Below, in pieces: positions 30,680-47,981 of a stretch of 64,000 nt of DNA. Every line of letters starts with the position of its first letter. Positions within the stretch are counted from its first letter, which is position 1. Origin of the DNA: Alitabrizicola rongguiensis. GTDB lineage: Bacteria > Pseudomonadota > Alphaproteobacteria > Rhodobacterales > Rhodobacteraceae. The DNA lies in the NCBI RefSeq assembly GCF_021491355.1, contig NZ_JAKENF010000001.1, positions 310,001 to 374,000 of the forward strand, given 5' to 3'. A program made the translations under genes and the position numbers. Below the pieces are notes generated by a model. It was not told the origin of the DNA. It searched no databases and was given only the letters and a program-made list of their open reading frames with translations.

Positions 30680-32467
30680 TCAGCTTCGCGCAGCGCGGTA
30701 GGCTCGCCATCCCCCGAAGTCGGTAATTTCCTCCGCGCCATCAAGTGCATGGGCCTCGCACAGGAAGCCTGAAACCTGCCGCCCGTCTGCCAGCGTGACC
30801 TTCCCGATGCCTAGCGGCGACGGGATGCGGGCAACGAACCGCCCGAACACGCCCGCAGGCAGCGCCCAGACTTCAACCTCGATCCCCGGTCCGGCAAAGC
30901 CAGGCTCGTGAATGAGGCCAGGCTTTGCCGGGACGGTGCCGGCAAGCGCATAGAGCCGATAATCGGGGGCGCTGCGCGTTGCTTCCAAAAGCATCCCGCC
31001 TGCTCCGGTCAGTTCGGGATTGAGCGGCATACCCGTCAGATGGGCGCCGACCACAACAATCGGCAGCATCTCATCGCTAACGGCCACGGGTGGCGGCGGC
31101 GGGACTTCGGCCGAGCGGTCTCGGCCCAGGCCACTGGCCGCTGCGCGGTGCAGAGCCGCAGCGAAGGGTGCGAGTGCGTCGTCACTGAAACCCGGCCCGA
31201 CCAACGTCACCCCCGCAGGCAGCCCGCTTGGACCAAAGCCCGCCGGAACCGCAATCGCCGCGTAGCCGAGAAGGTTCGCAAAGTTCGTGTAGCGCCCGAA
31301 CTGGCTGTTGCGGGCGATCGGGTCGGCCAGCATCGCCTCGACCGTGCAGGTGGTAGGCGAGGTAGGCAGAAGCAGCATGTCGACCTCGGCCCAGACCGGC
31401 GCGACGATCTTGCGCAACTCTTCCAGCCTGTAGCGCCCGCGGAAGGCGTCAACAGCCGTCTTGTCCTTTGCACCCTCGATGATCCGTCGCACGGTCGGAT
31501 CGAAATCCTCGGCGTGCTCTGCCAGGAAATCCTCGACCGCCGCCAGCCGTTCGGCCACCCAAGGACCGTCATAGAGCAGCGCCGCGACCTCGCGGAACGG
31601 GGCATAATCGAAGGGCAGGATCGTCGCACCCAGAGCTTCGGCCCGGGCGATGGCCGCGCCGTACAGCGCCTCGACCTCGGCATTGCCGTAGAACTCGCGC
31701 TCGGCACCAGCCAGAATACCGATCCGCGGACGCGAGGGTAGCGGGACCGGCAGGGCGGGCCGCGAGAACGGGTCACCCGCATCCTCACCCTCCATCAGGC
31801 GGCGGATTTCCACCCCTTCGGCCACTGTGGCGGCAAAGACCGTCACGACATCGACGCTGCGGCAGGCCGGAACCACGCCGGTATTGGGCACGAGGCCCGG
31901 AGTCGGTTTGATGCCGACGAGGTTGTTGAAGGCTGCGGGTACCCTGCCCGATCCCGCCGTGTCAGTCCCGAGCGCGAAGGTGCAAAGGCCAGACGCTACC
32001 GCCACCGCCGAGCCGGACGATGACCCCCCTGAAACATAGGCCGGATCAAAGACAGAGCGCGGCGCACCATAGGGCGAACGGGTGCCGTTCAGCCCGGTGG
32101 CGAACTGGTCCAGGTTGGTCTTGCCGATGACTATCGCGCCCGCGGCCCGAAGCCGTGCCACGACCGTGGCATCCGCAGAGGGGTGATAGGTATAGGCCGG
32201 GCAAGCGGCGGTTGTCGGCAGGCCCGCCGCGTCGATATTGTCCTTGACCGCGAAGGGGATGCCCCAGAGCAGCCGGCCCTGCGGCCCCTCGTCTGTCAGC
32301 CGGCGCGCCTCGGCGCGGAGCATCTCATCCGGGGTCGCGGTGATGAATACGGCCGGGTCCGGCAACGCCGCGCGGCGGGCGATGACCTCCTCGATCACCG
32401 CAAGCGGTGTGGTTCCGGCGGCATAGGCGGCGCGCAAAGCAGGCAGGGTCAACATCATCGGCAGCAT
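30680..32467 (-). CDS. atzF: allophanate hydrolase
   Basis: The enzyme hydrolyses allophanate to ammonia and CO2 in the cytoplasm, the last step of guanidine, urea-carboxylase and biuret pathways. The 595-residue protein has the amidase-signature domain with the Ser-cisSer-Lys triad K75 (GIPFAVKDN), S149 (VSGGSSSGSAVAV) and S173 (GTDTAGSGRVPAAF). The C-terminal allophanate-specific domain follows from about residue 470 (IVVVGAHLTGMPLNPELTGAGG). Its start overlaps the carboxylase stop by one base. It is the last gene of the riboswitch-led operon and the only allophanate hydrolase seen in the window. Confidence 0.93.
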   Translation of the reverse strand: MLPMMLTLPALRAAYAAGTTPLAVIEEVIARRAALPDPAVFITATPDEMLRAEARRLTDEGPQGRLLWGIPFAVKDNIDAAGLPTTAACPAYTYHPSADATVVARLRAAGAIVIGKTNLDQFATGLNGTRSPYGAPRSVFDPAYVSGGSSSGSAVAVASGLCTFALGTDTAGSGRVPAAFNNLVGIKPTPGLVPNTGVVPACRSVDVVTVFAATVAEGVEIRRLMEGEDAGDPFSRPALPVPLPSRPRIGILAGAEREFYGNAEVEALYGAAIARAEALGATILPFDYAPFREVAALLYDGPWVAERLAAVEDFLAEHAEDFDPTVRRIIEGAKDKTAVDAFRGRYRLEELRKIVAPVWAEVDMLLLPTSPTTCTVEAMLADPIARNSQFGRYTNFANLLGYAAIAVPAGFGPSGLPAGVTLVGPGFSDDALAPFAAALHRAAASGLGRDRSAEVPPPPPVAVSDEMLPIVVVGAHLTGMPLNPELTGAGGMLLEATRSAPDYRLYALAGTVPAKPGLIHEPGFAGPGIEVEVWALPAGVFGRFVARIPSPLGIGKVTLADGRQVSGFLCEAHALDGAEEITDFGGWRAYRAARS

Positions 32468-35400
32468 CAGGCGGTCTCCATCACGGCAAGCACATCTCCG
32501 GCGCGCACGGTCCGTCCGGGCGCGGCACGCAGGTCGCGGATCCGCCCGGATACAGGCGCCTCGACCATGATTTCCATCTTCATCGACTCGACAATGGCGA
32601 TGCGATCGCCCGCCGCCACTCGGTCGCCCGGCTCGACCAGCATCTTCCAGACGCTGCCGGGCACCGGGCTTTCGATCCCGGTGCAGCCATGGGGCACCTC
32701 GCCCTGATCCGAGGACAGGCTTTCGTCGGCAACGAAGGTGTCAAGCCCGGCCTCCTTCCAGCGCTGACGCTCGGCCTCGAAGGCGGCCTGCTGGCGGGTC
32801 TTGAAGGCGGCGATGGCACCTGCTTCGCCCGCGAGGCGTCGGCTCTCATCGGCCCAACTGAGCCGGGTCTCTTCGATCCGGACAGGATATCCGCCATGCG
32901 GGAAGGCAGCGCGCGCCTCGGTCAGTTCTGCATGGTCCACCGGGAAGAAACGGATCTGGTCAAAGAAGTCGAGCAGCCAGGGCCCATCCGCAAATGCTGC
33001 CGTTCGCCGCCAGGTGTTCCACATCTGGATCGTCCGACCGAACAGCTGATACCCCCCGGGCCCCTCCATCCCGTAGATGCACATATAGGCCCCGCCGATG
33101 CCAATGGCATTCTCGGGTGTCCATGTGCGCGCCGGGTTGTACTTCGTCGTCACCAGCCGGTGGCGCGGATCGACTGGTGTCGCGACCGGCGCCCCGAGAT
33201 AGACATCGCCCAGACCCAGCACCAGATAGCGCGCATCGAAGACGATGCGCTTGACTGCGTCTTCGTCTTCCAAGCCGTTGATCCGGCGGATGAACTCGAT
33301 GTTCGACGGGCACCACGGCGCATTGGGGCGGACAAGCTCCTGATACTTGCGCATGGCCAGCGCGGCATCGGGATCGTTCCAGGACAGCGGCAGGTGGACG
33401 ATGCGCGAGGGCACCGACACCTCTTCAGCGGGGGGAAGCTGCTCCTCGACCGCGGCGAGTTCGCGCAAGAGGTCGGCGCGGGCAATCCGGGCCGGGTCGT
33501 AGTGGATCTGCAGCGATCGGATGCCGGGCGTCAGGTCGATCACCGGCAATCCGGCCGCCTTCACCGCCTGCATCAGCACATGCACCCGGAGCCGAAGTCC
33601 CACGTCCAGCGCCATGTCCCCATATTCGACCAACAGGTTGGCGTCACCCTGCCGGCGATAGACCACCTGCACATCGCCATGACGCTCGCCCAAGATCGGC
33701 GAGCCTGCGCGGGCCACCGAAGGGCCGGCCACCGGATCGGTGGTCCTTTCGACCGGGCGGAAGCGCACCCGGTCGCCGGGCCGAAGTTGGCCGATCTTCC
33801 ACAGATCTTCCTCCGCCACGACCGCCGGGCAGACGAAGCCACCCAGGCTCGGGCCGTCGGGGCCAAGGATGATCGGCATGTCGCCGGTGAAGTCGATCGC
33901 CCCGATCGCATAGGCGTTGTCATGCAGGTTCGACGGGTGCAGCCCCGCCTCGCCGCCATCCGGCCGCGCCCAGTCCGGCGCCGGGCCGATCAGGCGGACG
34001 CCCGTGCGGGCCGAGTTGAAATGCACCTCGTAGGGGGTGGAGAAAAGCGTGTCGATGTCGCTGGTTCGGAAGAAATCCGGCGCGCCATGCGGGCCATAGA
34101 CAACAGAGAGATCCCAGTCATGGGTCAGGTCCGCGGGTTCCGGCGGGGTCACGGCGCCCTTTGGGCCGTTTGCCAGATGCAAGACATCGCCGGTCTTGAG
34201 CGTTCCGGTCGCGTGGCCGCCGAACTGTCCCAAGGCGAAACAGGCGCGCGAGCCCAGCACCTCGGGCGCAGCAAACCCGCCCGCGATCGCCAGATAGGCG
34301 CGCTGCCCCGGCCCGACGATGGCGCCGATCGACAGAACACCACCTGCCGGCACATCGACCATGGGTCCGGCATGGTCCTCGCCATTCAGGGTAAGCCGCA
34401 TTGCCGCCCCGGCCAGCGCCACCCGCGCCGCAGTCAGGAAACGCAACGTTGGGCCGTTGACGGTCAGCTCCAGCGCGGCGGTGTCGGGTGGGTTGCCGAC
34501 CAGCCGGTTGGCATTGCGAAAGGACCGCGCATCCATCGGACCAGAGGGAGGCACACCGACATGCCAGAGACCAAGGCGACCCGGAAGTTCCTGAAGGCTC
34601 GATTGCGCGCCGGGGGCCAGAACCTCGACCCCCTCGGGCACGAAGGGGAAGCTGCGCAGCGCCGTCGTTGCAACACGGCCCGAGGTGAACAGGTCCGACA
34701 CCGCAATCGCCCTAAGGTAGCCGAGGTTGGTTTCGATCCCCGACAGACGCGTTTCGGCGAGCGCAGTCTGGAGCGCAGCGATGGCGGCGGCCCGGTCAGG
34801 GCCTTGGACAATGACCTTGGCCAGCATCGGATCGTAGAAAGGCGTCACCTCGGTGCCCGTCTCGACCCAGCCATCGACACGGATGCCCGGCGGGAAGGTG
34901 ACCTCGGTCAGCAGCCCCGCCGCCGGACGGAAACCGGCATGGGGCATTTCGGCATAGATGCGCGCCTCGATGGCCGCCCCAAGCGGCTGCGGCAGTACCG
35001 CCGGAATGACCGCCTCGCTCGCCGCCTGCCGGATCATCCATTCCACGAGGTCGATGCCGAAGACGGCCTCGGTCACCGGATGCTCGACTTGAAGCCGGGT
35101 GTTGACCTCGAGGAAGTAGAACTCTTCCCGTGCGAGGTCGTAGATGAACTCGACCGTTCCAGCCGAGGCATAGGCGACACTGGCGCAGAGGTCTGTCGCC
35201 GCCCGGTGGAGCCTCTTGCGCACATCGTCCGGCAAGCCGGGGGCAGGCGTTTCCTCGATGACCTTCTGGTTGCGGCGCTGGAGCGAGCAGTCCCGCTCGC
35301 CAAGCGCCACCACCTTGCCCTGCCCGTCGCCGAAAACCTGCACCTCGACATGACGCGCCTCAGAGACGAAGCGTTCGAGGTAAACCCGCGCATCGCCGAA

Positions 35401-35970
35401 GCTGGCGCCGGCCATGCGCTGGACCCCGTCGAAGGCCGCGGTCAGCGCCGCGGCATCGTCGCAAAGCTGCATCCCGATCCCGCCGCCGCCCGCCGTGCTT
35501 TTCAGCATCACCGGGTAGCCGATGCGGTCTGCCGCGGCCAAGGCCTCCTCCAGCCCGGAAAGGAGCCCCGACCCAGGCAGCAGCGGCACGCCCGCCGCCT
35601 GTGCTAGGTCACGCGCCGTGTGCTTCAGCCCGAAGGCCGCAAGATGCTCAGGACGCGGGCCGATGAAGGCGATCCCTTCCGCCGCCAGCCGCTCGGCAAA
35701 GCCGATGTTCTCGGACAGGAAGCCGTATCCGGGATGCACCGCCTCGGCCCCGGTCGCCTTGCAGGCGGCCACCACCGCCTCGACGTTCAAATAGCTTTCC
35801 GTCGCCGGGGCCGGACCCAGCCGCACCGCCTCGTCGGCCATGCGGACCGCCATCGAGAAGCGGTCTGCATCGGAATGGACTGCGACCGAGGCGATCCCCA
35901 TCCGCCTCAGCGTGCGGATCACCCGCACCGCGATTTCGCCGCGGTTCGCGACAAGCACCTTGGCAAACAT
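32467..35970 (-). CDS. biotin-dependent guanidine carboxylase (urea carboxylase family)
   Basis: The enzyme carboxylates its nitrogen substrate with ATP, bicarbonate and a biotin arm. The 1167-residue chain has a biotin carboxylase domain (MFAKVLVANRGEIAVRVIRTL; glycine-rich ATP loop KSTAGGGGIGMQL; FYFLEVNTRLQVEHPVTE). The carboxyltransferase half, made of the two KipA/KipI-like allophanate-hydrolase-subunit folds, covers about residues 480-1030. The BCCP domain carries biotinyl lysine K1131 in VESMKMEIM. The ATG at 35970 is chosen because the family starts there. The urea and guanidine forms are one family. The guanidine-I riboswitch and the DUF1989 pair in the same operon point to guanidine, giving carboxyguanidine. 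Confidence 0.9.
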   Translation of the reverse strand: MFAKVLVANRGEIAVRVIRTLRRMGIASVAVHSDADRFSMAVRMADEAVRLGPAPATESYLNVEAVVAACKATGAEAVHPGYGFLSENIGFAERLAAEGIAFIGPRPEHLAAFGLKHTARDLAQAAGVPLLPGSGLLSGLEEALAAADRIGYPVMLKSTAGGGGIGMQLCDDAAALTAAFDGVQRMAGASFGDARVYLERFVSEARHVEVQVFGDGQGKVVALGERDCSLQRRNQKVIEETPAPGLPDDVRKRLHRAATDLCASVAYASAGTVEFIYDLAREEFYFLEVNTRLQVEHPVTEAVFGIDLVEWMIRQAASEAVIPAVLPQPLGAAIEARIYAEMPHAGFRPAAGLLTEVTFPPGIRVDGWVETGTEVTPFYDPMLAKVIVQGPDRAAAIAALQTALAETRLSGIETNLGYLRAIAVSDLFTSGRVATTALRSFPFVPEGVEVLAPGAQSSLQELPGRLGLWHVGVPPSGPMDARSFRNANRLVGNPPDTAALELTVNGPTLRFLTAARVALAGAAMRLTLNGEDHAGPMVDVPAGGVLSIGAIVGPGQRAYLAIAGGFAAPEVLGSRACFALGQFGGHATGTLKTGDVLHLANGPKGAVTPPEPADLTHDWDLSVVYGPHGAPDFFRTSDIDTLFSTPYEVHFNSARTGVRLIGPAPDWARPDGGEAGLHPSNLHDNAYAIGAIDFTGDMPIILGPDGPSLGGFVCPAVVAEEDLWKIGQLRPGDRVRFRPVERTTDPVAGPSVARAGSPILGERHGDVQVVYRRQGDANLLVEYGDMALDVGLRLRVHVLMQAVKAAGLPVIDLTPGIRSLQIHYDPARIARADLLRELAAVEEQLPPAEEVSVPSRIVHLPLSWNDPDAALAMRKYQELVRPNAPWCPSNIEFIRRINGLEDEDAVKRIVFDARYLVLGLGDVYLGAPVATPVDPRHRLVTTKYNPARTWTPENAIGIGGAYMCIYGMEGPGGYQLFGRTIQMWNTWRRTAAFADGPWLLDFFDQIRFFPVDHAELTEARAAFPHGGYPVRIEETRLSWADESRRLAGEAGAIAAFKTRQQAAFEAERQRWKEAGLDTFVADESLSSDQGEVPHGCTGIESPVPGSVWKMLVEPGDRVAAGDRIAIVESMKMEIMVEAPVSGRIRDLRAAPGRTVRAGDVLAVMETA

Positions 35971-35975
35971 CGGCC

Positions 35976-36569
35976 TCAGTCCCGGATGATGACGCGGATC
36001 GGCGTCGGGTCGAAGCCGTTGCAGGGATTGTTGATCTGCGGGCAGTTCGAGATGACGCAAAGCACGTCCATCTCGGCCTTCAGCTCCACGTGGTCGCCGG
36101 GCGCCGAGATGCCGTCGTCGATGGTCATCGCGCCATTCGGGCTGATCGGGACGTTCATGAAGAAGTTGATGTTCGGAACGATGTCCCGCTTGGACATGCC
36201 GTGTCGGGCCAGTTCCAGAAGGAAATTCTCGCGGCAGGCGTGGAGGTAGCGGGTCTCATGCCCGAAGCGCACGGTATTGGACTCGCAGGAGCAGCAGCCG
36301 GCCGAGGTGTCATGCCGCCCCGAGGTATCGGCGGTGACGGTCAGCATCACGCGCCCCTCGGACGAGACGATCTTCGCCCCGGTCGAGATATAGGCGATGC
36401 CATTCGTGCGCATCGTATCCTGGTTCGAGTAGCGCTCGCCGAAGTCATCGGCGTTGTAGAAGATCGTGTCGATCGCCTGCTGGCCAAAGCTGTCCTCGAT
36501 GCGGATGGTCTGGCCCTTGCGGACAACGCCGGACCAGGGCTTTTCGGCGGGAATCTCGTGGATCTGCAT
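35976..36569 (-). CDS. carboxyguanidine deiminase subunit (DUF1989)
   Basis: This DUF1989 protein was formerly called urea carboxylase-associated protein 2. In the guanidine pathway two such proteins (CgdA and CgdB) form the deiminase that turns carboxyguanidine into allophanate and ammonia. The 197-residue sequence opens IHEIPAEKPWSGVVRKGQTIRIEDSFGQQAIDTIFYNADDF and has a cysteine-rich SAGCCSCESNTVRFGH segment near residue 94 that may bind metal. INFFMNVPISPNG and DVLCVISNCPQINNPCNGFDPTPI follow. It lies 5 bases before the carboxylase start and 11 bases after the partner gene. I have not assigned the A or B letter with certainty. Confidence 0.85.
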   Translation of the reverse strand: MQIHEIPAEKPWSGVVRKGQTIRIEDSFGQQAIDTIFYNADDFGERYSNQDTMRTNGIAYISTGAKIVSSEGRVMLTVTADTSGRHDTSAGCCSCESNTVRFGHETRYLHACRENFLLELARHGMSKRDIVPNINFFMNVPISPNGAMTIDDGISAPGDHVELKAEMDVLCVISNCPQINNPCNGFDPTPIRVIIRD

Positions 36570-36580
36570 GATGGTCCCCC

Positions 36581-37381
36581 TCAGCCCCGCGCGTTGTTTT
36601 CAAAGCCGCGGATCGCCTCGGCCGTGGCGGTGCGGCAAAGGTCGTCGGCCGGCACCGGCCTTGCCGCAAGGCGGGTCGCGGTGACCGCCGGTTCCGGTCC
36701 CGTGGCGGGGTCGAGCGGATGGCGGGTATTGGACAGGGCGATCAGCAGGTCCATCTCGGCGCGCAGTTCTACCCAGTCTTGCCCAGACAGAAGCGCACCG
36801 CGCCAGCCGAAGCGGCCCGCCGCATCAACCCGCACCGGGGCGAAGAGCGTCAGCACCGCCGGCAGGTCGCGCCGGTCGAGGCCCAGCTTGCCCGCCGCCA
36901 ACACCATGTTGTCGCGCTGGTTGCGCGCACGTGGATCAGCAAAGGTCGCGGGCGAAGACCCGCCGGTCAGGGCATCATGCGCGCCGGAACTGTCCTCGGT
37001 GATCGACAGCATCACCCGGCCCATGTCGGAAAAGATGACCCGCCCCCTGCGCAGCTCGGTCGTCCACTGGACCTTGACCGTATCGGGCAGGTTCATCCGT
37101 TCGGATGGGTCGCGCGCCGCCCAGGCGGCAAGGCCAACGCTCGTGCCGCTGCCGCCAAGGGCCAGCCGCAGCACCTCGCCCGCCGCCAGCCGGGTCGGCC
37201 AGTACCAGCCGCCTGGGATCACCTCGGTCTGCAGGACACGCTCCGGATCGGGATCAGGCGCCGGAACCGGGCTGGGGTCCGGCAGGGCCTTCGGCGCAAA
37301 GTTCAGGCCGCGGCGCTGGTGTTCTTCGTAGCGGGCGCGGTCGGCGGCAATCTGGTCGGGGCTGCGGGGGGTGTGGAGCAT
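36581..37381 (-). CDS. carboxyguanidine deiminase partner subunit (DUF1989)
   Basis: This is the second DUF1989 protein, formerly urea carboxylase-associated protein 1. I use the ATG at 37381, which has AGGAGAGG just upstream (266 residues, MLHTPRSPDQIAADRARYEEHQRR). The N terminus is a Pro-rich linker after RGLNFAPKALPDPSP. The core has GGWYWPTRLAAGEVLRLAL, GRVMLSITEDSSGAHDALTGGS and LFAPVRVDAAGRFGW, parallel to the companion protein. It would form the heteromeric deiminase that makes allophanate. Confidence 0.85.
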   Translation of the reverse strand: MLHTPRSPDQIAADRARYEEHQRRGLNFAPKALPDPSPVPAPDPDPERVLQTEVIPGGWYWPTRLAAGEVLRLALGGSGTSVGLAAWAARDPSERMNLPDTVKVQWTTELRRGRVIFSDMGRVMLSITEDSSGAHDALTGGSSPATFADPRARNQRDNMVLAAGKLGLDRRDLPAVLTLFAPVRVDAAGRFGWRGALLSGQDWVELRAEMDLLIALSNTRHPLDPATGPEPAVTATRLAARPVPADDLCRTATAEAIRGFENNARG

Positions 37382-37397
37382 CTGCCTCTCCTGATGT

Positions 37398-38213
37398 CTA
37401 CCGGGTCGTCCCGGATGGGGCCGCGAACAGGGCCGGGTCGTCCCGGCCGGGCAGGGTGTCGATCTCGAACATCGTGCGCTGGCCGGCCACGCGCGGCGGC
37501 CACAGGACGATGTCCTTGGTGATGGTCGCGCCGTAGCGCTCGAGTTCCTCGGTGCGAGTGCGGGTGCGCTCGAAGGCGATGATCCGGGTCGCCAGGCTGA
37601 AGGCCTCGCGCAGGTCATGGGTGACCATGACCACCGTCATCGGCACCTCGTTCCACAGCCGCTTCATCAGCACATGGATATCGGCGCGGATGCCGGGATC
37701 GAGCGCACCGAAGGGCTCGTCCAGCAGCAGCACGCGCGGCTGCATCATCAGCGCTTGCGCCAGCGCCAGCCGCTGCTGCATTCCCCCCGACAGTTGCGCG
37801 GGGTATTTCGTCTCGGCCCCCTCCAGCCCGACCTCGCCGATCATCGTCCGCGCCTGCTCCTCGATCCGGCGGCGGGTGGCGCCGAACGTCCGACCCAGCC
37901 GGCGGCTGGCGCGAAGTTCGGGGCCAAACATGACGTTGCCCAGCACCGTCAGGTGCGGAAAGACCGAGTAGCGCTGATAGACCACACCGCGATCGGGGCC
38001 CGGCTCGGGCGGCAGAGGCGCACCGTCGAGCAGGATGCGCCCGCGCGTCGGCTGTTCCTGACCCAGGAGCATCCGCAAGAAGGTGGTCTTGCCGCAGCCC
38101 GAGGGACCGACCAGCGCCACGAAGGCGCGCGGCGCGACCTCGAGCGAGATGTTTTCCAGCACGATCTGGTCGCCGTATTCCTTCCAGACCCTTTCGACGG
38201 TCAGGGCGGTCAT
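37398..38213 (-). CDS. ABC transporter ATPase, NitT/TauT type, probably guanidine uptake
   Basis: The 271-residue ATPase has Walker A VGPSGCGKTTFLRMLLG, signature LSGGMQQRLALAQALMM, Walker B VLLLDEPFGALDP and switch VTHDLREAF. It belongs to the nitrate/sulfonate/taurine importer class and energises uptake by the neighbouring permease. It overlaps the permease stop by four bases. Such transporters are a known class of guanidine-I riboswitch targets, so guanidine import is the favoured reading. Confidence 0.9.
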   Translation of the reverse strand: MTALTVERVWKEYGDQIVLENISLEVAPRAFVALVGPSGCGKTTFLRMLLGQEQPTRGRILLDGAPLPPEPGPDRGVVYQRYSVFPHLTVLGNVMFGPELRASRRLGRTFGATRRRIEEQARTMIGEVGLEGAETKYPAQLSGGMQQRLALAQALMMQPRVLLLDEPFGALDPGIRADIHVLMKRLWNEVPMTVVMVTHDLREAFSLATRIIAFERTRTRTEELERYGATITKDIVLWPPRVAGQRTMFEIDTLPGRDDPALFAAPSGTTR

Positions 38214-39028
38214 CGCGCACCCTCCAGTTCGGACCAGGGGAAGACGCGGCGGCGGGCAAGGTCGATCAGGCGGTCACCGATCACGGCCAGAAGCGTGATC
38301 CAGGCGACATAGGGAAAGATCACGTCCATCGACAGGTAACGCCGGACAAGGAAGATCCGGTAGCCCAAGCCGGAATCGGCCGAGATCGCCTCGGCCGCGA
38401 TCAGGAACAGGAAGGCCGGCCCCAGTTGCAGGCGCAGGCTGGTCAAGAGGCGCGGCAGCACCTGTGGCAGCACCACACGCAGGCCGATCAGCCAGGTTGA
38501 GGCCGACAGCGTCTCGGCCTTGACGATCTGTTCGCGCGGCAGCGCCTGCGCCGACAGCGACAAGTCGCGGATCAGGATCGGCGCCACACCGATCACGATC
38601 AGTGCGATCTTCGAGGCCTCGCCCAGACCCATTACGATGAAGAGGATCGGCAGCAGCGCCAGCGGCGGCACCATCGAGACAAAGGCAATGAAGGGCGCGA
38701 GCGTCGCCCGCATCACCGGCAAGAGCCCGATCAGCAGGCCGATGACCAGCGCGAGCGCAGTCGAGATGCCAAGCCCTGCGAAGAGACGCCAGAGGCTCGC
38801 CGCCGTGTCGGACCAGAGCAGGTAATCCCCAGTGCGCGGATCGGGCTGGAAGGCCATGCGGTTGACGGTATCCGCCAGCGTCGCGAGCGACGGCAAGAGC
38901 TTGTCATTCGGGTTGGCCTCCAGCCGGATCGCCGAGCCGATCAGGTAGGCAACGATCAGCAGGGCGAAGGGCAGGCAGTGCAGCACGAGGGTGGCCCCGC
39001 GCGACGGCCGCCGGTTGATCCAGCGCAT
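38210..39028 (-). CDS. ABC transporter permease, NitT/TauT type
   Basis: The 272-residue inner-membrane subunit has about six spans. The cytoplasmic EAA-like loop is GLGEASKIALIVIGVAPILIRDLSLSAQALPREQIVKAETLSAS, with the conserved Gly spacing seen in importers. It partners the ATPase immediately downstream and the binding protein 16 bases upstream, together forming the importer of the riboswitch-controlled operon. Confidence 0.9.
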   Translation of the reverse strand: MRWINRRPSRGATLVLHCLPFALLIVAYLIGSAIRLEANPNDKLLPSLATLADTVNRMAFQPDPRTGDYLLWSDTAASLWRLFAGLGISTALALVIGLLIGLLPVMRATLAPFIAFVSMVPPLALLPILFIVMGLGEASKIALIVIGVAPILIRDLSLSAQALPREQIVKAETLSASTWLIGLRVVLPQVLPRLLTSLRLQLGPAFLFLIAAEAISADSGLGYRIFLVRRYLSMDVIFPYVAWITLLAVIGDRLIDLARRRVFPWSELEGAR

Positions 39029-39044: not shown

Positions 39045-40115
39045 TCAGAGCGCGCCGTCGGCGGCGAGCTTCATGTAGGTGTCGCTGAAGCGCAGCTTCA
39101 CATTGCCCGTGTCACCCAGCACCGCGCCACCCGGCAGTTCGATCCCGATCACGTCAGCCGAAGGCGCGCCGGACCCGAGCAGGCCCTTGTCGAACAGGAA
39201 GCCCCGCACATGGTCCATCGTCTTGGACAGATCCGGCGAGGTCACGAAACCCACCGCATCCGCCGGCTTGGCGAACAGCTTGGTCGCTGCCAGCTGATCC
39301 TCGAAACCCGCCTGATCGGTGCCAGAGGCCGCGCCCATCGCCGCCCGCGCTGCAGCGCCTTCGGGCGTGTCAGAGGCCATCACGGTGACGGTGTCATACC
39401 AGATGCCCGCCAGCGCCTTGCCGAAGTCGGGGTTGTCGGCCAGCACCTGCGTGTTTGCGACCATCAGGTCGATGATCTCGCCCGGGATCTGGCTGCTGTC
39501 GAAGACCTTGGTCGCGCCCGGCAACTTGACGATTTCGGAGACCATCGGGTTCCACGTCACCATCGCGGTCACGTCCGGCGTCTGAAAGGCGCCGACCATG
39601 TCGGGATCAGCGGTGTTGACCACTTTCACGTCCTGCTCGGACATGCCGACGCTGTCGAGCGCCCGCGCCAGCAGGTAATGCGAGACCGAGAACTCCACGA
39701 GGTTCACGTTGCGGCCCTTGATGTCGGCCAGCGTCGCGCCGTCCTTCAGGATCACAGCGTCATTGCCTGCAGAGAAATCGCCGACGATCACCGCCGTCGT
39801 ATCCACGCCCCCGGCCGAGGGGATGGAAAGCGCGTCCATGTTGGTGACGGTCACCGCGTCATAGGCACCGGCGGTGTACTGGTTGATCGATTCCACATAG
39901 TCGTTGAACTGGGTCACCTCGATGGTGATGCCATACTTGTCGGCCCATTTCTTGACGATCCCGGTATCGGCGGCATAGCCCCAGGGCATCCAGCCGACAT
40001 AGATCGACCAGGCGACCTTGAAATCCTTCTTCGGTTCGGCAAGGCCGGGTCCGGCCACGGCCAGAACGGCCAAAGCGGTCAGCGTGGCAAGCGCGGTTCG
40101 ACGGCACATCGTCAT
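39045..40115 (-). CDS. ABC transporter substrate-binding protein, probably for guanidine
   Basis: This is a periplasmic NMT1/SsuA-like binding protein. The ATG at 40115 has AAGGGAC upstream and gives 356 residues with a signal peptide (MTMCRRTALATLTALAVLAV to the Ala-Glu cut near residue 26). The mature part opens KKDFKVAWSIYVGWMPWGYAADTG, and its GAYDAVTVTNMDAL segment is typical of the class. It is the first gene after the riboswitch terminator. Confidence 0.88.
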   Translation of the reverse strand: MTMCRRTALATLTALAVLAVAGPGLAEPKKDFKVAWSIYVGWMPWGYAADTGIVKKWADKYGITIEVTQFNDYVESINQYTAGAYDAVTVTNMDALSIPSAGGVDTTAVIVGDFSAGNDAVILKDGATLADIKGRNVNLVEFSVSHYLLARALDSVGMSEQDVKVVNTADPDMVGAFQTPDVTAMVTWNPMVSEIVKLPGATKVFDSSQIPGEIIDLMVANTQVLADNPDFGKALAGIWYDTVTVMASDTPEGAAARAAMGAASGTDQAGFEDQLAATKLFAKPADAVGFVTSPDLSKTMDHVRGFLFDKGLLGSGAPSADVIGIELPGGAVLGDTGNVKLRFSDTYMKLAADGAL

Positions 40116-40448: not shown

Positions 40449-40802
40449 TCACGGATCCTCTCCGACGAATTCCACGGGGCGCTCCCACTGAATCAGCACG
40501 ACACAACCCGGAGTGGACCATACGGAATGGATGCTGCCCTCGGGGTTGACGATCAATGCTCCGGTCCCATAGTCGCCGTGTTCGTCGCTTTGCGCCCCTT
40601 CCAGTACGAGGATGGTCTCCAGTCCGGTATGGCGATGGCGCGGGACCGAGGCGCCGGGGGCGTAGCGCAGCAGCGCGACCGAGGGAAAGCCATCGCAAAG
40701 CGGGCAGATCTCGACCCCCTGCCGGAAGGGCTGGAATGGCAGCGCCGCCCAGCCGCCGGAAGCGAGGCCCGGAAACGACAGGGGTTCAATCATCGAGCGC
40801 AT
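40449..40802 (-). CDS. small cupin-domain protein
   Basis: The 117-residue single-domain protein has a cupin core: [28 protein letters not shown] (His-x-His...Glu metal ligands near residues 56-63) and [11 protein letters not shown]. It resembles the ChrR-like cupin group. It overlaps the upstream cysteine hydrolase gene (stop at 40786) and is the last gene of the biuret/triuret module, ending about 140 bases before the riboswitch. Its role is unknown; a sensor or auxiliary enzyme is possible. Confidence 0.8.
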
Positions 40803-41454
40803 CCACGATTTCAGCCGTCGTCGCCGTCCAGCCGACGATCGCCCCCTGCGCGCGGATCATCTGCAGGGCGGCTTCCTTGAATTCGGGGAAATAGCTTTCG
40901 GTCGCGTCCTCGGCGAGCAGGCAGTCAAAACCCCGGTCATTGGCCTCGCGCATCGTGGTCTGCACGCAGACCTCGGTCGTGACGCCGGCAAAGACCAGCG
41001 TTCGGATGCCGAGCCTTGCCAGATGATCGCCAAGCGGGGTGGCGTAGAAGGCGCCCTTCCCCGGCTTGTCGATCACGATCTCGCCCGCCGCCGGCAGCAG
41101 TTGCGGCACGATCTCGGCCCCCGGTTCGCCCGCGATCAGGATGCGTCCCATCGGGCCCGGATCGCCGATCCGGAGCGAAGGCTTGCCCCGCTCGCGCTTG
41201 GCCGGTGGACAGTCCGACAGATCGGGGCGATGGCATTCGCGGGTATGGATCACCGGCAGGCCAGCTGCGCGGAACCCTTCGATCAGGGCGGCCACGGTCG
41301 GGATGATGGCGGCCAGCACCGAGACGTCATTGCCTAGGGCCGCACCGAATCCTCCCGGCTCGATGAAGTCGCGCTGCATGTCGATGACGATCAGCGCCGT
41401 CGTGGCCGGATCGAAGCGAAGGGGAAAGGGCCTGGCGGCCACGATCTCGGCCAT
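40786..41454 (-). CDS. isochorismatase-like cysteine hydrolase, possible triuret hydrolase TrtA
   Basis: The 222-residue hydrolase has the Asp-Lys-Cys triad D25 ([10 protein letters not shown]), K130 ([11 protein letters not shown]) and C163 ([19 protein letters not shown]). It is related to BiuH, encoded two genes upstream, but differs around the active site ([32 protein letters not shown]). Published triuret pathways pair a BiuH with such a second cysteine hydrolase (TrtA) that opens triuret toward biuret, and the gene context here fits. A ureide amidohydrolase is the alternative. It overlaps the ABC ATPase by one base and the cupin gene by 17. Confidence 0.85.
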
Positions 41455-42994
41455 CAGGCATGTCCCCCCATGTGATGGCCGATGGTCCCGATGTCCGCCT
41501 GCGCCGCATCTACGGCATAGGCGATGCGCCCCTCAGACATGACCAGAACACGGTCCGACAGCTCGAGGATCTCGTCCAGGTCCTCGCTCATCAGCAGCAC
41601 CGCCGCACCCCGGTTGCGCGCTGCGACGATGCGGGCGCGGATTTCGGCCACCGCCGAGAAATCGAGGCCGAAGCACGGGTTCGAGATCACCAACAGGTCA
41701 ACGTCACCCGTCAGTTCCCGCGCCAGAACGGCGCGCTGCACGTTCCCGCCCGAGAGAGCGGCGATCGGCGCATCGACTGAGGTCGTCTTGACCTTGAAGT
41801 CGCGCACCAGCTCGTTGGCCCGCGCCCGGATCTCGCGCCCCTTCAACCAGAAACGCGTGCCCTTTCCGTCCTGGTCGAAGCTGCGGAAGCCGATGTTTTC
41901 GGCCACGCTCATCTTTGGCGCGCAGGCGTTGCGGAGCGGCTCTTCGGGCAGGTAGCGAACGGCGCGGATGCGGGCCTCGGCCCGGCTGGCGCTGTAGGGT
42001 GCGCCCTTGACCCTGATTGTTCCCGCCTCCAGCCCACGCTGGCCTGTCAGGATCTCCATCAGTTCCATCTGACCGTTGCCCGAGATGCTGCAACACCGAC
42101 GATCTCGCCTGCGCGAACAGTCAGCCCCTCGATCGATATCTCCTTCAGGCCAGAACGGTCACGCGTGCGGACGCCGTCCACTTCCAGGACCGGCGCTCCT
42201 GCCATGCCCGCCCGCGCCATTGCGGCAACGGGCGCATCGGACCCGATCATCATGTTCGCCATATCGGCATGGCTCAGATCAGCCACCCTGCCCTGCCCCA
42301 CGAGCCGACCGCGCCGCAGGACCGAGACATCGTCGGCAAAGGCCGTCACCTCGCGAAACTTGTGGCTGATCATCAGGACCGAGATCTCGCCCTTTTCGCA
42401 CAGGCCACGGACATGACCGAGAACCTCGTCCGCCTCGTCGGGCGTCAGGACCGAAGTCGGCTCGTCGAGGATGAGGAAGCGGCGGCCGAGATAGAGCTGC
42501 TTCAGGATCTCGAGCTTCTGCTTCTCGCCCGCTGCCAGCGCCCGGACCGGCTGGTCCAGCGGCACGGCGAAGGGCATCCGCTCCATGAACTCGGTCAGCG
42601 CCGCATGTTCTTTCCGCCAGTCGATAATGGCGGGGGTGTCATCGCGGCTGATGACGAGGTTCTCTGCGGCGGTCAGCGAGGGGACCAGCGTGAAATGCTG
42701 GTAGACCATGCCGAGGCCAAGCGCATGGGCTGCCCGCGGATCGGGCACCTTCGCCTCGCGTCCTCCGACCATCATCTGCCCCGTGGTCGCGTGGTAGAAG
42801 CCCATCATACATTTCACGAGCGTGGATTTGCCCGCGCCGTTCTCGCCCAGAAGCGCATGGAACGTGCCGGGTGGCACAGTGATCGATACGTCATCGAGGG
42901 CCGTGAACCCCCCGAAGCGCATGGTCATGCCAAGGGTTCTGACCTCGAGCGCGCCTTCGGGCAGCTTTTCCTCGCCGATCACCATCATGGTCAT
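41454..42994 (-). pseudogene. frameshifted sugar/nucleoside-type ABC importer ATPase
   Basis: Together the two halves encode one double-ATPase of the BMP-importer (nucleoside/CUT2) type, about 513 residues. The first half (42994 to 42059) has Walker A LGENGAGKSTLVKCMMGFYH and Walker B LILDEPTSVL and runs to VRAGEIVGVAASRATVRWN before a stop. The second half (from 42068 to 41454) begins MELMEILTGQRGLEAG and has LSGGNVQRAVLARELTG. The family sequence across the join should read GVAGISGNGQMEL. Restoring one G at about 42088 gives exactly that, so a single-base deletion breaks the frame. It could be a sequencing error. It lies between biuH and the second cysteine hydrolase. Confidence 0.85.
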
Positions 42995-44606: not shown

Positions 44607-45715
44607 GTCCTCCAGCGTTCCGGGGTGAAGATCTTGAACCGTCCGTAGAGCGCATCGCTGAGCAGGATCGCGACGAAGACGAACCCCTGCAGCACCAGGA
44701 CGGTCGCGTCGGGCAGGTCCATCCGCCGTTGGATCAGGCCCGACGAAGCCTCGAACCCGGCCAGAAGGCAGGCGACGGGGATGATCGCAAGCGGGTTGTG
44801 ACGCGCAAGGAAAGCAATGAGGATACCGGTGAAACCATATCCGGCCGCGAGCGAGGCATTGGCAGAGCCAAGCACAGCCGAGGTCTCGAAGAAACCGGCG
44901 AGGCCGGCAAAGGCACCCCCGAGCGCGGTAAATCCAAGGATCAGCCGGCCCACAGGCAGGCCCTGCACCTGCGCTGCGCGCACGTTGCCGCCGGCGATCC
45001 GGGCGGCGAAGCCCCAGGTCGTACGGTCGATCAGCGCCCAGGACAGGATACAGCACAGGATGCCCACCGGCAGGCCCCAGTGCAGCTCCGCCCCGGGGAT
45101 GTTGCCGACGCGAAGTGCATCGGGCAGCGGCGCGGTAGACGGTTTGTTCAGGCTCGCCGGGTCGCGCAGAGGTCCTTCGACGATATGATTCATCAGGGCG
45201 ATGGCGATGTAGGACATCAACAGGCTGGCAATCGTCTCGTTCACGCCGCGGTAGTGCCGCAACGCCCCGACGGTGCCGATCCAAAGTCCTCCGACGAGCG
45301 CCGCGGCCAGGGCCATCAGCGGCAGGCCGACCCAGGACGACGCGCCGCTCAGCACAACCCCAAGCGCCCCGGCCGCCACGCCGCCCAGAACGATCGCCCC
45401 CTCGCCACCAATGACCACGAGGCCCAGCCTTGCGGGCAGCGCGACGCAAAGGGCGGCAAACAGGAGCGGGGCAGCCCGCGAAAGCGTGTTCTGCCAAGAA
45501 AACCAGCTGCCGAAGCCCGCCTTGTAGACCAGGCCATAGAACTCGGCCGGGGATTTTCCCTGCGTCATCAGGAAGAAGCCGAAGATCGCGAGCCCGGCCA
45601 GAAGCGCGCCGACCGGAAGCACGACGGCCTCGGACTTGCGGGCGAGAGCGGCGCGCCATCCTTCCCCCGCCCCTGCCCTGGCTCCGGCCTGAACCATGGC
45701 TGTCACATCGGCCAT
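44603..45715 (-). CDS. BMP-type ABC importer permease 1
   Basis: The 370-residue inner-membrane protein has about ten spans, including LPVGALLAGLAIFGFFLM, APLLFAALCVALPARLGLVVIGGEGAIVLGG and YRGVNETIASLLMSYIAIALMNHIVEGPLRDP, the last two being signature stretches of the YufP/NupB class. The ATG at 45715 has GGAGGG upstream. It lies 19 bases after the binding-protein gene and overlaps permease 2. Confidence 0.9.
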   Translation of the reverse strand: MADVTAMVQAGARAGAGEGWRAALARKSEAVVLPVGALLAGLAIFGFFLMTQGKSPAEFYGLVYKAGFGSWFSWQNTLSRAAPLLFAALCVALPARLGLVVIGGEGAIVLGGVAAGALGVVLSGASSWVGLPLMALAAALVGGLWIGTVGALRHYRGVNETIASLLMSYIAIALMNHIVEGPLRDPASLNKPSTAPLPDALRVGNIPGAELHWGLPVGILCCILSWALIDRTTWGFAARIAGGNVRAAQVQGLPVGRLILGFTALGGAFAGLAGFFETSAVLGSANASLAAGYGFTGILIAFLARHNPLAIIPVACLLAGFEASSGLIQRRMDLPDATVLVLQGFVFVAILLSDALYGRFKIFTPERWRT

Positions 45716-45734
45716 GTGCCGCCCTCCGCAGACG

Positions 45735-46859
45735 TTACGAGGTGGAGCCGAGGACACCCTCGACGAGGTAGTCCATGCTTTCAAGCTTGACGTCCGTCTC
45801 GACGAAGGCTTCGCCCTCTGCCGCGATGACGTTGCCCTTGTTGTCCTTCAGCGGGCCCTTGATGACGGCAAAGCCACCCTTGAGGATCTCGGCCTGCTTC
45901 GCCTCGAAATCGGCCTTTGCCTCGGGGGTCACGGCAGGCCCGAGCGGCGACATCTTGATGAAGCCTTCGGCGAGCCCGCCACGGACGAAGTTCGGGATCG
46001 GCTCGCCCGCCATCGTCGCAGTAATCATGTCGGTATAGACCTTGGACCAGTTCCACTCGGCCCCGGTCAGATACTTGTCGGGCGCGAGCGAGGACTGGTT
46101 GGCATGGTAGCCGCAGACATAGGCGCCACGACCGGCCGCTGTCTCGATCACAACCTTGGGGCTGTCCACGTGGCAGGTGATGACATCACACCCCGCGTCG
46201 CACAGTGCGTTCGTCGCCTCGGCCTCCTTCACGGCCAGCGACCATTCGCCGGTGAAGATCACCTGGCAGGTGATGGTCGGATCGACCGAGCGCGCGCCCA
46301 GAAGGAAAGAGTTGACGTTCAGCAAGACCTGCGGAATCGGCTTGGCCGCAACGAACCCGATCTTCTTGGTCTTGGTCATGTGCCCGGCAACGACGCCGTT
46401 CAGGTACTGACCCATGCCGATATAGCCGAAATAGCTGCCGACATTCGTCGGATGCTTGTCGGCCTGCCACATCCCGCCCGCATGCTCAAAGCGGACATCG
46501 GGATATTTCGCCGCCATCTCGAGGATATGGGGATCGAAATAGCCGAAAGAGGTCGGGAACAGGAGCGTGGCCCCGTCGAAGTTGATCATCGACTCCATCG
46601 TCTTCTGGACGTCGATGGTTTCGGGGACGTTTTCTTCTTCCACCACCGTCACGCCGGGAATGGATTTCAGCGCCGCAGCGCCCTCGGCATGGGCCTGGTT
46701 GTAGCCATAGTCATCCTTGGGTCCCACATAGATGAACCCGACTGTCAGCTTGTCGAGGGCCTCGGCACGGGCCATGCGGGGCAGTCCCAAAAACGCGGCA
46801 GACCCGGCAAGCGCCGTCCCCATCAGAAAGTGGCGGCGCGAAAGAGAGGAAGTGGACAT
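45735..46859 (-). CDS. BMP-family substrate-binding protein
   Basis: This is a periplasmic basic-membrane-protein type receptor of 374 residues. The ATG at 46859 has GGAG upstream. A twin-arginine signal is visible: SSLSRRHFLMGTALAGSAAFLGLPRMARA. The mature part opens LDKLTVGFIYVGPKDDYGYNQAHAEGA and continues INFDGATLLFPTSFGYFDPHILEMAAKYPDVRFEHAGG, as in Med/PnrA-like receptors. In this operon the ligand is more likely biuret, triuret or a related ureide than a nucleoside; that is inferred from the neighbouring hydrolases. Confidence 0.9.
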   Translation of the reverse strand: MSTSSLSRRHFLMGTALAGSAAFLGLPRMARAEALDKLTVGFIYVGPKDDYGYNQAHAEGAAALKSIPGVTVVEEENVPETIDVQKTMESMINFDGATLLFPTSFGYFDPHILEMAAKYPDVRFEHAGGMWQADKHPTNVGSYFGYIGMGQYLNGVVAGHMTKTKKIGFVAAKPIPQVLLNVNSFLLGARSVDPTITCQVIFTGEWSLAVKEAEATNALCDAGCDVITCHVDSPKVVIETAAGRGAYVCGYHANQSSLAPDKYLTGAEWNWSKVYTDMITATMAGEPIPNFVRGGLAEGFIKMSPLGPAVTPEAKADFEAKQAEILKGGFAVIKGPLKDNKGNVIAAEGEAFVETDVKLESMDYLVEGVLGSTS

Positions 46860-47081
46860 CAGCGGTTCTCCATCCTGGCGGGCCGCGTCTAGGACGTGAG
46901 GGGAGGAGGAAGGCAGCCCGAACAAAGATGACGATGAGCAATCAGAGTGCTGCTGTCTCCTGCTGATTTCGCACTGGATCGCTGCAAGACCTGCAGCACT
47001 TATCATGCCGGAGAAAATCCGCCCCCGCAGCCATCGGCATGGTCAGGCCCAGACGACCAAGAAGTGACGGCTCAAGAGAGA

Positions 47082-47981
47082 TCAGCTGTAGCGCTCGGTC
47101 ATGGCTCGCGCGATCTGATCGGCGAACTTCGCGGCAGCGACCGGAAGGCTTCGTCCGCGCAACTGGCCAAGCAGAAGCTGCCCGGGCGCGGCATCCCGCA
47201 GATCGAGCGGGCGATATTGCAGCCCGTCCTGCCCTTGTGGCGGCAGGCCGATCGGGATCTGGAACGAAATCAGGTTCTCGGTGGTCGGATAGCGGCGCAG
47301 GAACTCGAAGCTGTCCGACTCGACGGTGGCCGGAAGACGGAACGAGGCCCGTGTCATGGCCGCATCGATCAGATGACGCACTCCGTAGGATGCAGTCGGG
47401 AGTCCGATCGGGTATGGCACGCAGTCACGCAGGCGGACGATCTCTTTCTTCGCCAGCGGGTGGTCCGCCGCCATGACAGCGCAAATGGTCTGCTGTACCG
47501 CTGTCAGCGTGTGAAAATCGCTGAAACGCACAGGCTCCAGCACCAGCGCAATATCCGCGGAATGATCGACAAGCGCCTGCTCGGCCGCATCTCGGTCGCG
47601 CAGATGCACGCTGAAGGTCACAGCCGGGTGGTCGCGGCGATAGAGCGATATCTGCTCGGGCAGGAAGAACGGGAGCAGCGCCTGGCTGCAGGCGATCGAG
47701 ATATGGCCGCGCCGTTCCCCCGAAAGATCGGCGATATGTGACCGGACTCGGTCCAGGTCGGAGATCTGGTTGCGGATGTGATGGATCAGCAACTCTCCCG
47801 CCGTCGACAGCCTTACCCCGCGCGGCAGCCGCTCGAAGATCGGAACCCCCAGTTCCTCCTCCATCGCCAGAAGCCGCCGGTTCAGCGCCGTCGAGGTGAT
47901 GGCCAGCGTCTCGGCCGCCTTGCGGATCGAGCCGGCCCGGGCGATCGCATCGATATAGCGTAAGGAGTCGAGATGCTTCAT
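47082..47981 (-). CDS. LysR-family regulator of the biuret/triuret module
   Basis: The ATG at 47981 gives 299 residues. They comprise a winged HTH (MKHLDSLRYIDAIARAGSIRKAAETLAITSTALNRRLLAMEEELGVPIFERLPRGVRLSTAGELL) and an effector domain (RRGHISIACSQALLPFFLPEQISLYRRDHPAVTFSVHLRDRDAAEQAL). It points toward the importer-hydrolase genes, 222 bases upstream of the binding-protein start, and probably controls them. The longer upstream frame lacks homology. The inserted element begins on its promoter side. Confidence 0.88.
   Translation of the reverse strand: MKHLDSLRYIDAIARAGSIRKAAETLAITSTALNRRLLAMEEELGVPIFERLPRGVRLSTAGELLIHHIRNQISDLDRVRSHIADLSGERRGHISIACSQALLPFFLPEQISLYRRDHPAVTFSVHLRDRDAAEQALVDHSADIALVLEPVRFSDFHTLTAVQQTICAVMAADHPLAKKEIVRLRDCVPYPIGLPTASYGVRHLIDAAMTRASFRLPATVESDSFEFLRRYPTTENLISFQIPIGLPPQGQDGLQYRPLDLRDAAPGQLLLGQLRGRSLPVAAAKFADQIARAMTERYS

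What the first reader, a model, noticed from the sequence alone, without database searches (positions are those of the whole stretch)
30680..47981. Two ureide modules that converge on one allophanate hydrolase
An importer with BiuH and a second cysteine hydrolase (biuret/triuret) sits head-to-tail with a guanidine importer, carboxylase and deiminase. Both routes end in allophanate, and only one AtzF is visible, in the guanidine operon. This looks like a combined scavenging island for guanidine, biuret and perhaps triuret nitrogen. I do not know of a description of the two modules joined in this way.
Basis: partly seen in the sequence, partly recalled or inferred. Interest (0 to 1): 0.75.

Follow-up and report, generated by a model that had tools for sequence, protein, structure and literature searches.

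The report
Triuret and guanidine islands sharing AtzF
Two known sets of genes that let bacteria use unusual nitrogen compounds (triuret/biuret and guanidine) sit side by side and appear to share one final enzyme, an arrangement that recurs in several other bacteria in different layouts.

Summary
All genes lie on the minus strand at 30680-47981: a triuret/biuret module (LysR, SBP, fused permease, BiuH, ATPase, TrtA, cupin), then a guanidine module (Guanidine-I riboswitch, importer, Guanidine-II riboswitch, CgdB, CgdA, guanidine carboxylase, AtzF). The second cysteine hydrolase looks like triuret hydrolase (TrtA): 13 of 13 positions taken from the TrtA paper match. The carboxylase has both guanidine-type aspartates. 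The genome has one AtzF above cut-off.

The join is not private. Of 16 other genomes found with guanidine carboxylase and BiuH, 9 have BiuH within 20 kb of AtzF (0.1 expected), in four layouts counting the window's. Of 17 such genomes (own included), 14 keep one AtzF, in the guanidine operon. Of 17 BiuH genomes without the carboxylase, 16 have an AtzF within 12 kb of BiuH. So the triuret module usually lacks its own AtzF where a guanidine operon supplies one.

Caveats: here the importer ATPase is frameshifted and LysR inverted; a same-genus relative lacks BiuH and most of the importer. The local triuret half may be decaying, or the missing base may be an error. Function is inferred. Each module is known; my searches found no description of the join.

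The parts
47082..47981 (-). LysR-type regulator of the triuret/biuret module; co-directional with SBP here, divergent in relatives
   Evidence: Pfam HTH_1 and LysR_substrate; 65-70% identical to the LysR beside the same module in L007, G001 and G181
46860..47081 (-). Upstream region of the importer operon with a GTGCTGCA...TTGCAGC-like element, candidate LysR site
   Evidence: A similar element lies between LysR and SBP in G001 and G181 (read by eye)
45735..46859 (-). BMP-family substrate-binding protein (triuret/biuret importer, inferred)
   Evidence: Pfam Bmp; 80% identical to the SBP of L007
43680..45659 (-). Fused permease: two permease subunits in one reading frame
   Evidence: perm1 and perm2 of L007 map consecutively on it at 81% and 84% identity
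42991..43683 (-). BiuH, biuret hydrolase
   Evidence: NF050097 423 bits, cut-off 370; 416 bits to the chains of 6azn/6azq (PMC7948467 names 6AZQ as BiuH)
41454..42994 (-). Double-NBD importer ATPase, split into 42059-42994 and 41454-42068 by one base fewer near 42088
   Evidence: Both halves align to the single ATPase of L007 and of L008 in two frames; G006, G181 and G550 are in frame at this point
40786..41454 (-). TrtA, triuret hydrolase
   Evidence: 304 bits to 6xix; 13 of 13 TrtA positions checked are conserved; 51% to the pMET-2 cysteine hydrolase taken as guanylurea hydrolase
40449..40793 (-). Small ChrR-type cupin protein of the triuret operon, role unknown (carboxybiuret decarboxylation is a guess)
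   Evidence: Pfam Cupin_7; same place and 61-66% identity in L007 and L008
40187..40297 (-). Guanidine-I riboswitch aptamer
   Evidence: RF00442, 80.3 bits, gathering 63
39045..40115 (-). Guanidine importer substrate-binding protein (likely start ATG 40115)
   Evidence: TIGR03427 546 bits, cut-off 334; start placed
38210..39028 (-). Guanidine importer permease
   Evidence: Pfam BPD_transp_1
37398..38213 (-). Guanidine importer ATPase; the end of its coding sequence holds the Guanidine-II aptamer
   Evidence: Pfam ABC_tran; overlap
37401..37449 (-). Guanidine-II riboswitch aptamer, inside the ATPase coding sequence and upstream of cgdB
   Evidence: RF01068, 45 bits, gathering 32
36581..37381 (-). 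CgdB, carboxyguanidine deiminase subunit
   Evidence: TIGR03425 220 bits, cut-off 206; start read
35976..36569 (-). CgdA, carboxyguanidine deiminase subunit
   Evidence: TIGR03424 319 bits, cut-off 285
32467..35970 (-). Guanidine carboxylase
   Evidence: TIGR02712 1774 bits for the ORF 32467-36060, cut-off 1304; Asp at K. lactis positions 1330 and 1584
30680..32467 (-). AtzF, allophanate hydrolase, guanidine-type clade; only one over cut-off in the genome
   Evidence: TIGR02713 770 bits, cut-off 511; tree

Best explanation
A combined scavenging island. The BMP-type importer is expected to bring in triuret/biuret, TrtA turns triuret into carboxybiuret (which decarboxylates to biuret), and BiuH turns biuret into allophanate. 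The second importer brings in guanidine, and guanidine carboxylase plus CgdAB turn it into allophanate. One AtzF, encoded at the end of the riboswitch-controlled guanidine operon, splits the allophanate of both routes into ammonia and CO2. The triuret module lacks the AtzF that it usually carries in genomes without the guanidine pathway. Shown by sequence: the gene content, the residues that mark the enzymes, the riboswitches, the single AtzF, and the recurrence of the join and of the missing AtzF in other genomes. Inferred: substrates of the importers, flux through AtzF from both sides, and expression. In this genome the triuret importer ATPase may be broken.
For: Enzyme identities. One AtzF over cut-off in the genome. 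BiuH within 20 kb of AtzF in 9 of 16 other genomes holding guanidine carboxylase and BiuH, against 0.11 expected for random places; all 16 carboxylases have both guanidine-type aspartates. Four layouts: triuret-then-guanidine (window), guanidine-then-triuret (G181, G550, G531, G539, G543, G544), convergent (G530), divergent (G536, G534). 'Joined' needs at least 4 changes on the BiuH+TrtA tree of 46 loci. Single AtzF in 14 of 17 such genomes, while of 17 BiuH genomes without the carboxylase 16 have an AtzF, each within 12 kb of BiuH. All 10 joined loci placed in the AtzF tree carry the guanidine-type AtzF.
Against: ATPase frameshift and LysR inversion in this genome; in the same-genus G006 the triuret module begins only at ATPase residue 127 and no BiuH was found although the genome is 99% complete. 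AtzF sits behind guanidine riboswitches, so it may not be made when only triuret is present. In 7 of 17 genomes BiuH is not within 20 kb of AtzF (5 on another contig than the guanidine AtzF, 2 more than 160 kb away), 2 of 17 keep two intact AtzF and a third a damaged second one. Guanidine-type AtzF also occurs in 6 triuret loci where no carboxylase was seen in the flanks. Among the order sample of 390 genomes only 2 of the 9 with BiuH-like and TIGR03427 matches, own included, have them close; the other 7 lack the carboxylase. Urease is present in 10 of 10 genomes tested, so AtzF may not be essential.
Confidence: 0.75

Rival explanations
1. In this genome the triuret/biuret half is a decaying remnant and only the guanidine half works.
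For: One-base frameshift in the ATPase not seen in three relatives; LysR inverted relative to three relatives; G006 of the same genus lacks LysR, SBP, permease, BiuH and the start of the ATPase at this place, and BiuH genome-wide.
Against: BiuH, TrtA, SBP and permease are open and 71-89% identical to those of L007 and L008; a single missing base may be an assembly error; the candidate LysR site upstream of the SBP gene is kept.
Confidence: 0.35
2. Allophanate from biuret is not handled by AtzF in joined genomes: it decarboxylates to urea and urease finishes the job, so the triuret module lost AtzF because it was dispensable, not because it is shared.
For: Urease alpha in 10 of 10 genomes tested: 9 of the 10 with BiuH near AtzF (G534 not tested) plus G006; AtzF lies behind guanidine riboswitches. 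That allophanate decarboxylates is recalled.
Against: Genomes with BiuH but no guanidine carboxylase keep AtzF near BiuH in 16 of 17 cases; urease was not counted in that group, so this is not a full control.
Confidence: 0.15
3. The second hydrolase is a guanylurea hydrolase, so the modules work in series (guanylurea to guanidine) rather than side by side.
For: Guanylurea hydrolases are of the same protein family and feed the guanidine carboxylase pathway (PMC9800807, passages seen); the protein is 51% identical to the pMET-2 cysteine hydrolase, which I take to be the enzyme of that paper from its neighbour.
Against: 304 bits to TrtA and 13 of 13 TrtA positions conserved; the pMET-2 protein differs at the positions of F35, N41, E160 and Q202; BiuH accompanies it in the 10 joined loci read (not in G006).
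Confidence: 0.05
4. The modules are neighbours by chance, as passengers of genomic islands, with no functional link.
For: An integrase gene lies beside the island at 48262-49551.
Against: 9 of 16 other genomes within 20 kb, 0.11 expected; a crude count of only four lineages is still unlikely by chance; different layouts; absence of the triuret AtzF.
Confidence: 0.08

Closest known systems
Triuret operon TrtA-BiuH-AtzF (R. leguminosarum 3841, Herbaspirillum BH-1; PMC7948467, passages seen)
   Same: TrtA and BiuH together; BMP-type importer and cupin in the same order as in four alphaproteobacterial plasmid copies
   Different: No AtzF of its own; the only AtzF is in the adjoining guanidine operon
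Guanidine carboxylase operon under Guanidine-I and Guanidine-II riboswitches (Raoultella, Erwinia, Klebsiella; PMC12186494, passages seen)
   Same: Importer, CgdAB, carboxylase and AtzF with both riboswitch classes
   Different: Guanidine-II lies in the 3' coding end of the importer ATPase, before cgdB, rather than before the carboxylase; adjoins a triuret module
Guanylurea pathway GuuH + guanidine carboxylase (Pseudomonas mendocina; PMC9800807, passages seen)
   Same: An isochorismatase-family hydrolase and the guanidine pathway in one organism
   Different: There the hydrolase feeds guanidine in series; here TrtA/BiuH feed allophanate in parallel
Nitrifier triuret clusters with atzF, and with allFGHK in comammox (PMC12625717, passages seen)
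   Same: TrtA, BiuH and nucleoside-type importer clustered, in comammox next to another nitrogen pathway
   Different: The authors report no guanidine degradation genes in their nitrifier genomes

Membership tests
Triuret hydrolase (TrtA) | Catalytic triad D24, K129, C162; F29, E72, K132, V157, T158, E160, Q202; TrtA-type F35, N41, I205 | tested here: met
   13 of 13 of these positions identical (positions from passages of PMC7948467)
Triuret hydrolase (TrtA) | Hydrolyses triuret, not biuret | not testable with these tools
   Needs enzyme assay
Biuret hydrolase (BiuH) | NF050097 above curated cut-off; D36, F41, K142, K145, Q215 with Y53, V218, D173 | tested here: met
   423 bits, cut-off 370; residues match with an assumed numbering offset of 3
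Guanidine carboxylase | Asp at K. lactis positions 1330 and 1584 (criteria of PMC11410670) | tested here: met
   D693 and D922 of the protein starting at 35970
Guanidine carboxylase | Prefers guanidine to urea | not testable with these tools
   Needs enzyme assay
Carboxyguanidine deiminase CgdAB | Two DUF1989 subunits of the TIGR03424 and TIGR03425 kinds next to the carboxylase | tested here: met
   319 and 220 bits, cut-offs 285 and 206; which model is CgdA and which CgdB is recalled
Guanidine-I and Guanidine-II riboswitches | Rfam gathering scores | tested here: met
   80.3/63 and 45/32 bits
Published triuret operon | Own AtzF with TrtA and BiuH | tested here: not met
   No AtzF in the triuret half; one AtzF over cut-off in the genome, in the guanidine operon
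Guanylurea hydrolase (GuuH) | Nearest to guanylurea hydrolase rather than to TrtA | tested here: not met
   51% to the pMET-2 protein over 203 residues; 304 bits to TrtA. GuuH of strain GU itself was not at hand

The most novel reading that the evidence does not exclude
The join is a selected regulatory unit, not only a shared enzyme: because AtzF is locked behind two guanidine riboswitches, guanidine acts as the signal that opens the last step for triuret and biuret as well, so the cell treats the compounds as one class (for example products of purine oxidation) and uses triuret nitrogen fully only when guanidine is present.
Probability: 0.12. Interest if true: 0.75.

Novelty: new variant of a known kind. 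Interest (0 to 1): 0.5.

Why it matters
It shows two little-studied ureide pathways merging repeatedly on one enzyme, with the second copy of that enzyme usually absent, so one gene deletion would test two nitrogen routes at once. It also poses a clear question: how is an AtzF under guanidine riboswitches made available for triuret. For annotation it warns that a triuret operon without AtzF is not necessarily incomplete.

Tried and rejected
Guanylurea hydrolase as the identity of the second hydrolase was considered and set aside. A terminator as the Guanidine-I expression platform: the window has an AAGGGATTG...CAATCCCTT stem and a T run at 40138-40175, but three other loci show instead different sequences that can pair with the Shine-Dalgarno region (G181, G052, L042, read by eye). 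I lean to translational control but did not test it. The whole-region fold was uninformative (z -0.76). The promoter/terminator scan found no more than chance. The importer family TIGR03427 alone is a poor marker of the carboxylase pathway: of the 50 genomes (42 of the family sample with a BiuH-like and/or TIGR03427 match, 2 of the own genus, 6 of the order sample with both), 5 have TIGR02712; in one without it (G069, L043) the importer stands next to an arginase-family gene. BiuH and TIGR03427 co-occur in 11 of 198 family genomes, but 9 of these 11 lack the carboxylase, so I do not use that figure for the join.

Counts and dropped rows: matches under 45% identity to ATPases, LysR and perm2 were left out of the map; also SBP1 and permease; one query (AtzD) was cut out of frame by one base and is not used. 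In one search two duplicate rows were dropped (97 to 95), four loci were labelled 'both' from genome distances, and G006 is not in that tree. In one search, 46 of the 105 loci given (window included) had both BiuH and TrtA after removal of duplicates. Genome G551 (BiuH 361 bits, under cut-off) is not in the 17. Of 80 AtzF loci, 37 showed a carboxylase in the flanks, 3 of them (L080, L120, L126) with Asn at position 1330, so probably urea carboxylases. The 45 genomes are these 37 plus 8 others. Completeness of the named genomes is not given by the tool, and several are MAGs. In one search a fifth row (100 bases of L139) was put in by mistake; I read the other four rows only, and its consensus line is not used. 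One search used a wrong residue offset for TrtA; one search corrects it. One search was made while checking this report.
Full report
WHAT IS THERE. All the genes lie on the minus strand, transcribed from high to low coordinates. First comes a triuret/biuret module: LysR regulator (47082-47981), BMP-type substrate-binding protein, a permease ORF that covers both permease subunits of the relatives, BiuH, a double-domain ATPase, a second cysteine hydrolase, and a small cupin protein. About 330 bases after the cupin gene begins the guanidine module: SBP, permease, ATPase, CgdB, CgdA, carboxylase, AtzF (ending at 30680). Rfam finds a Guanidine-I aptamer just before the second SBP (40187-40297) and a Guanidine-II aptamer before cgdB (37401-37449), both over gathering score.

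WHICH ENZYMES. BiuH is over the curated cut-off and matches 6azn/6azq, the published BiuH, at 416 bits. The second hydrolase matches triuret hydrolase 6xix at 304 bits. The 13 positions that I took from passages of the TrtA paper (PMC7948467) are all identical, among them those that the authors discuss as separating TrtA from BiuH. The cysteine hydrolase of pMET-2 (L030), which I take to be the guanylurea hydrolase of PMC9800807 (passages seen), is 51% identical and differs at four of these positions. The carboxylase has aspartate at both positions (K. lactis 1330 and 1584) that PMC11410670 requires of guanidine carboxylases, the first of which separates them from urea carboxylases.

ONE AtzF. 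The genome (99.96% complete) has one AtzF above cut-off; the other five matches score 57-183 bits against a cut-off of 511.

IS THE JOIN PRIVATE TO THIS GENOME? No. In a family sample of 198 genomes, BiuH over cut-off is in 19 and the guanidine-type SBP in 32. Of 50 genomes then searched, 5 have the carboxylase: the own genome, G006 (same genus), G181, G028 and G052. Of the last three only G181 has BiuH, and its modules are adjacent in the opposite order, with under 100 bases between AtzF and LysR. In an order sample of 390 genomes, 21 have a BiuH-like match, 48 the SBP and 9 both (G000, G071, G181, G482, G490, G493, G504, G511, G513); only G000 and G181 have them close, and the other 7 lack the carboxylase. 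The best 80 AtzF loci in named GTDB genomes include 37 with a carboxylase in the flanks. Of these 37 genomes, 15 have BiuH over cut-off, and in 8 of the 15 BiuH lies within 20 kb of AtzF. With G181 this is 9 of 16 other genomes, against 0.11 expected for random places. All 16 carboxylases have both guanidine-type aspartates. The layouts differ: guanidine then triuret in G181, G550, G531, G539, G543 and G544 (gaps between the modules from under 100 bases to about 10 kb); convergent in G530 (Rhodobacter MAG); divergent in G536 (Devosia) and G534 (Rhizobium SL86, about 6 kb apart); triuret then guanidine in the window and, cut short, in G006. On a BiuH+TrtA tree of 46 loci the label 'joined' needs at least 4 changes; such a count cannot tell gain from loss.

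WHERE THE TRIURET AtzF WENT. Among the 17 genomes with carboxylase and BiuH (own included), 14 have a single AtzF, the one after the carboxylase. G541 and G546 have two intact ones, the second after TrtA and cupin. G534 has a second, shorter match with an internal stop. Among 17 family genomes with BiuH but no carboxylase, 16 have an AtzF over cut-off, each within 12 kb of BiuH; the exception, G124, is 84% complete. Fisher's test gives p about 2e-6, or 1e-5 if the damaged copy of G534 is counted as present, but the two groups differ in taxonomy and the rows are related, so the p-value is only a guide. The AtzF tree of 95 rows (quick method, labels from 10-kb flanks) has a largely triuret half (42 rows: 31 triuret, 8 neither, 3 carboxylase) and a largely guanidine half (53 rows: 28 carboxylase, 10 joined, 9 neither, 6 triuret). 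The 3 carboxylase rows in the triuret half (L080, L120, L126) have Asn at position 1330 and are probably urea carboxylases. All 10 joined rows lie in one strongly supported set of 32 rows, which also holds the six triuret rows without a carboxylase in the flanks (two Sphingomonas, Fulvimarina, Jiella, and MAGs named Roseivivax and Tabrizicola). So this type of AtzF is not bound to guanidine.

HOW IT MOST LIKELY WORKS. Triuret to carboxybiuret (TrtA), to biuret, to allophanate (BiuH); guanidine to carboxyguanidine to allophanate (carboxylase, CgdAB); AtzF for both. The chemistry is published for each route; the sharing is inferred from gene content. AtzF is downstream of two riboswitches that normally switch on with guanidine (PMC12186494, passages seen), so how AtzF is supplied on triuret alone is open. 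Read-through from the triuret promoter in the window's layout, basal expression, or joint supply of both compounds are possible. Urease is present in 10 of 10 genomes tested, so a bypass through urea is also possible.

LOCAL DAMAGE. The ATPase reading frame shifts by one missing base near 42088; G006, G181 and G550 are in frame there. LysR is turned round compared with L007, G001 and G181, although a candidate operator is kept upstream of the SBP gene (by eye). G006 lacks everything from LysR to the middle of the ATPase's first half at this place, and no BiuH was found in that genome. Another genome of the genus with a BiuH, G001, is cut by a contig end inside the ATPase, and neither AtzF nor the carboxylase was found in it (83% complete), so it cannot tell. 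The triuret half may thus be failing in this genus, or the missing base may be an error.

KNOWN OR NEW. Each half is known. Literature searches on combinations of guanidine carboxylase, biuret, triuret, guanylurea hydrolase, carboxyguanidine deiminase, allophanate hydrolase, gene cluster and riboswitch listed no paper whose title or abstract start describes the join; the passages read in PMC7948467, PMC9800807, PMC12186494, PMC12625717 and PMC11410670 do not mention it. Other listed papers were not opened, apart from PMC9481103 on tandem riboswitches (passages). The library holds open-licence papers only, and two papers that I asked for were not held. I therefore call it a new variant of a known kind.

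SIDE RESULT. Eleven guanidine carboxylase loci were scanned with Rfam (window, L028, L031, L041, L042, L051, L052, L057, L060, L068, L071). Ten have a Guanidine-II aptamer over gathering score (L042 does not), and in all 10 it lies wholly inside the 3' end of the importer ATPase ORF. The aptamer match is 49 bases in six rows (window, L028, L031, L041, L051, L071) and 50 in four (L052, L057, L060, L068), so the encoded tail differs while the RNA is kept.

Noticed in passing
window 37401-37449 (also L028, L031, L041, L051, L052, L057, L060, L068, L071): Guanidine-II aptamer lies entirely within the 3' coding end of the guanidine importer ATPase gene, upstream of cgdB, in 10 of 10 loci where it was found (11 scanned).
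   Followed up: partly
window 42059-42994 and 41454-42068: One-base frameshift splits the triuret importer ATPase in its second nucleotide-binding domain; three relatives are in frame there.
   Followed up: partly
window 47082-47981: LysR gene is inverted relative to the same operon in L007, G001 and G181; candidate operator remains upstream of the SBP gene.
   Followed up: partly
L028/L140 (G006): Same-genus genome keeps TrtA and cupin beside the guanidine operon but lacks BiuH, permeases, SBP and the first 126 residues of the ATPase at this place.
   Followed up: partly
L043 5346-6734 (G069): A Guanidine-I importer stands next to an arginase-family enzyme instead of the carboxylase, perhaps a guanidinase route; 28 of 32 TIGR03427 genomes of the family sample lack the carboxylase.
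   Followed up: partly
window 43680-45659: Two permease subunits are fused in one ORF of 659 aa; separate genes in L007 and L008.
   Followed up: no
L137 5618-6844 (G534): A triuret-type AtzF match with an internal stop about 2 kb from TrtA, on the other strand, in a genome that also has the guanidine AtzF; possibly a copy on its way out.
   Followed up: no
window 48262-49551: Phage-type integrase gene directly beside the island on the other strand; no tRNA found in the window.
   Followed up: no
L071 (record titled Exiguobacterium profundum isolate SSD5): Record carries a joined island nearest to Rhodobacterales ones, so the species name is probably wrong.
   Followed up: no
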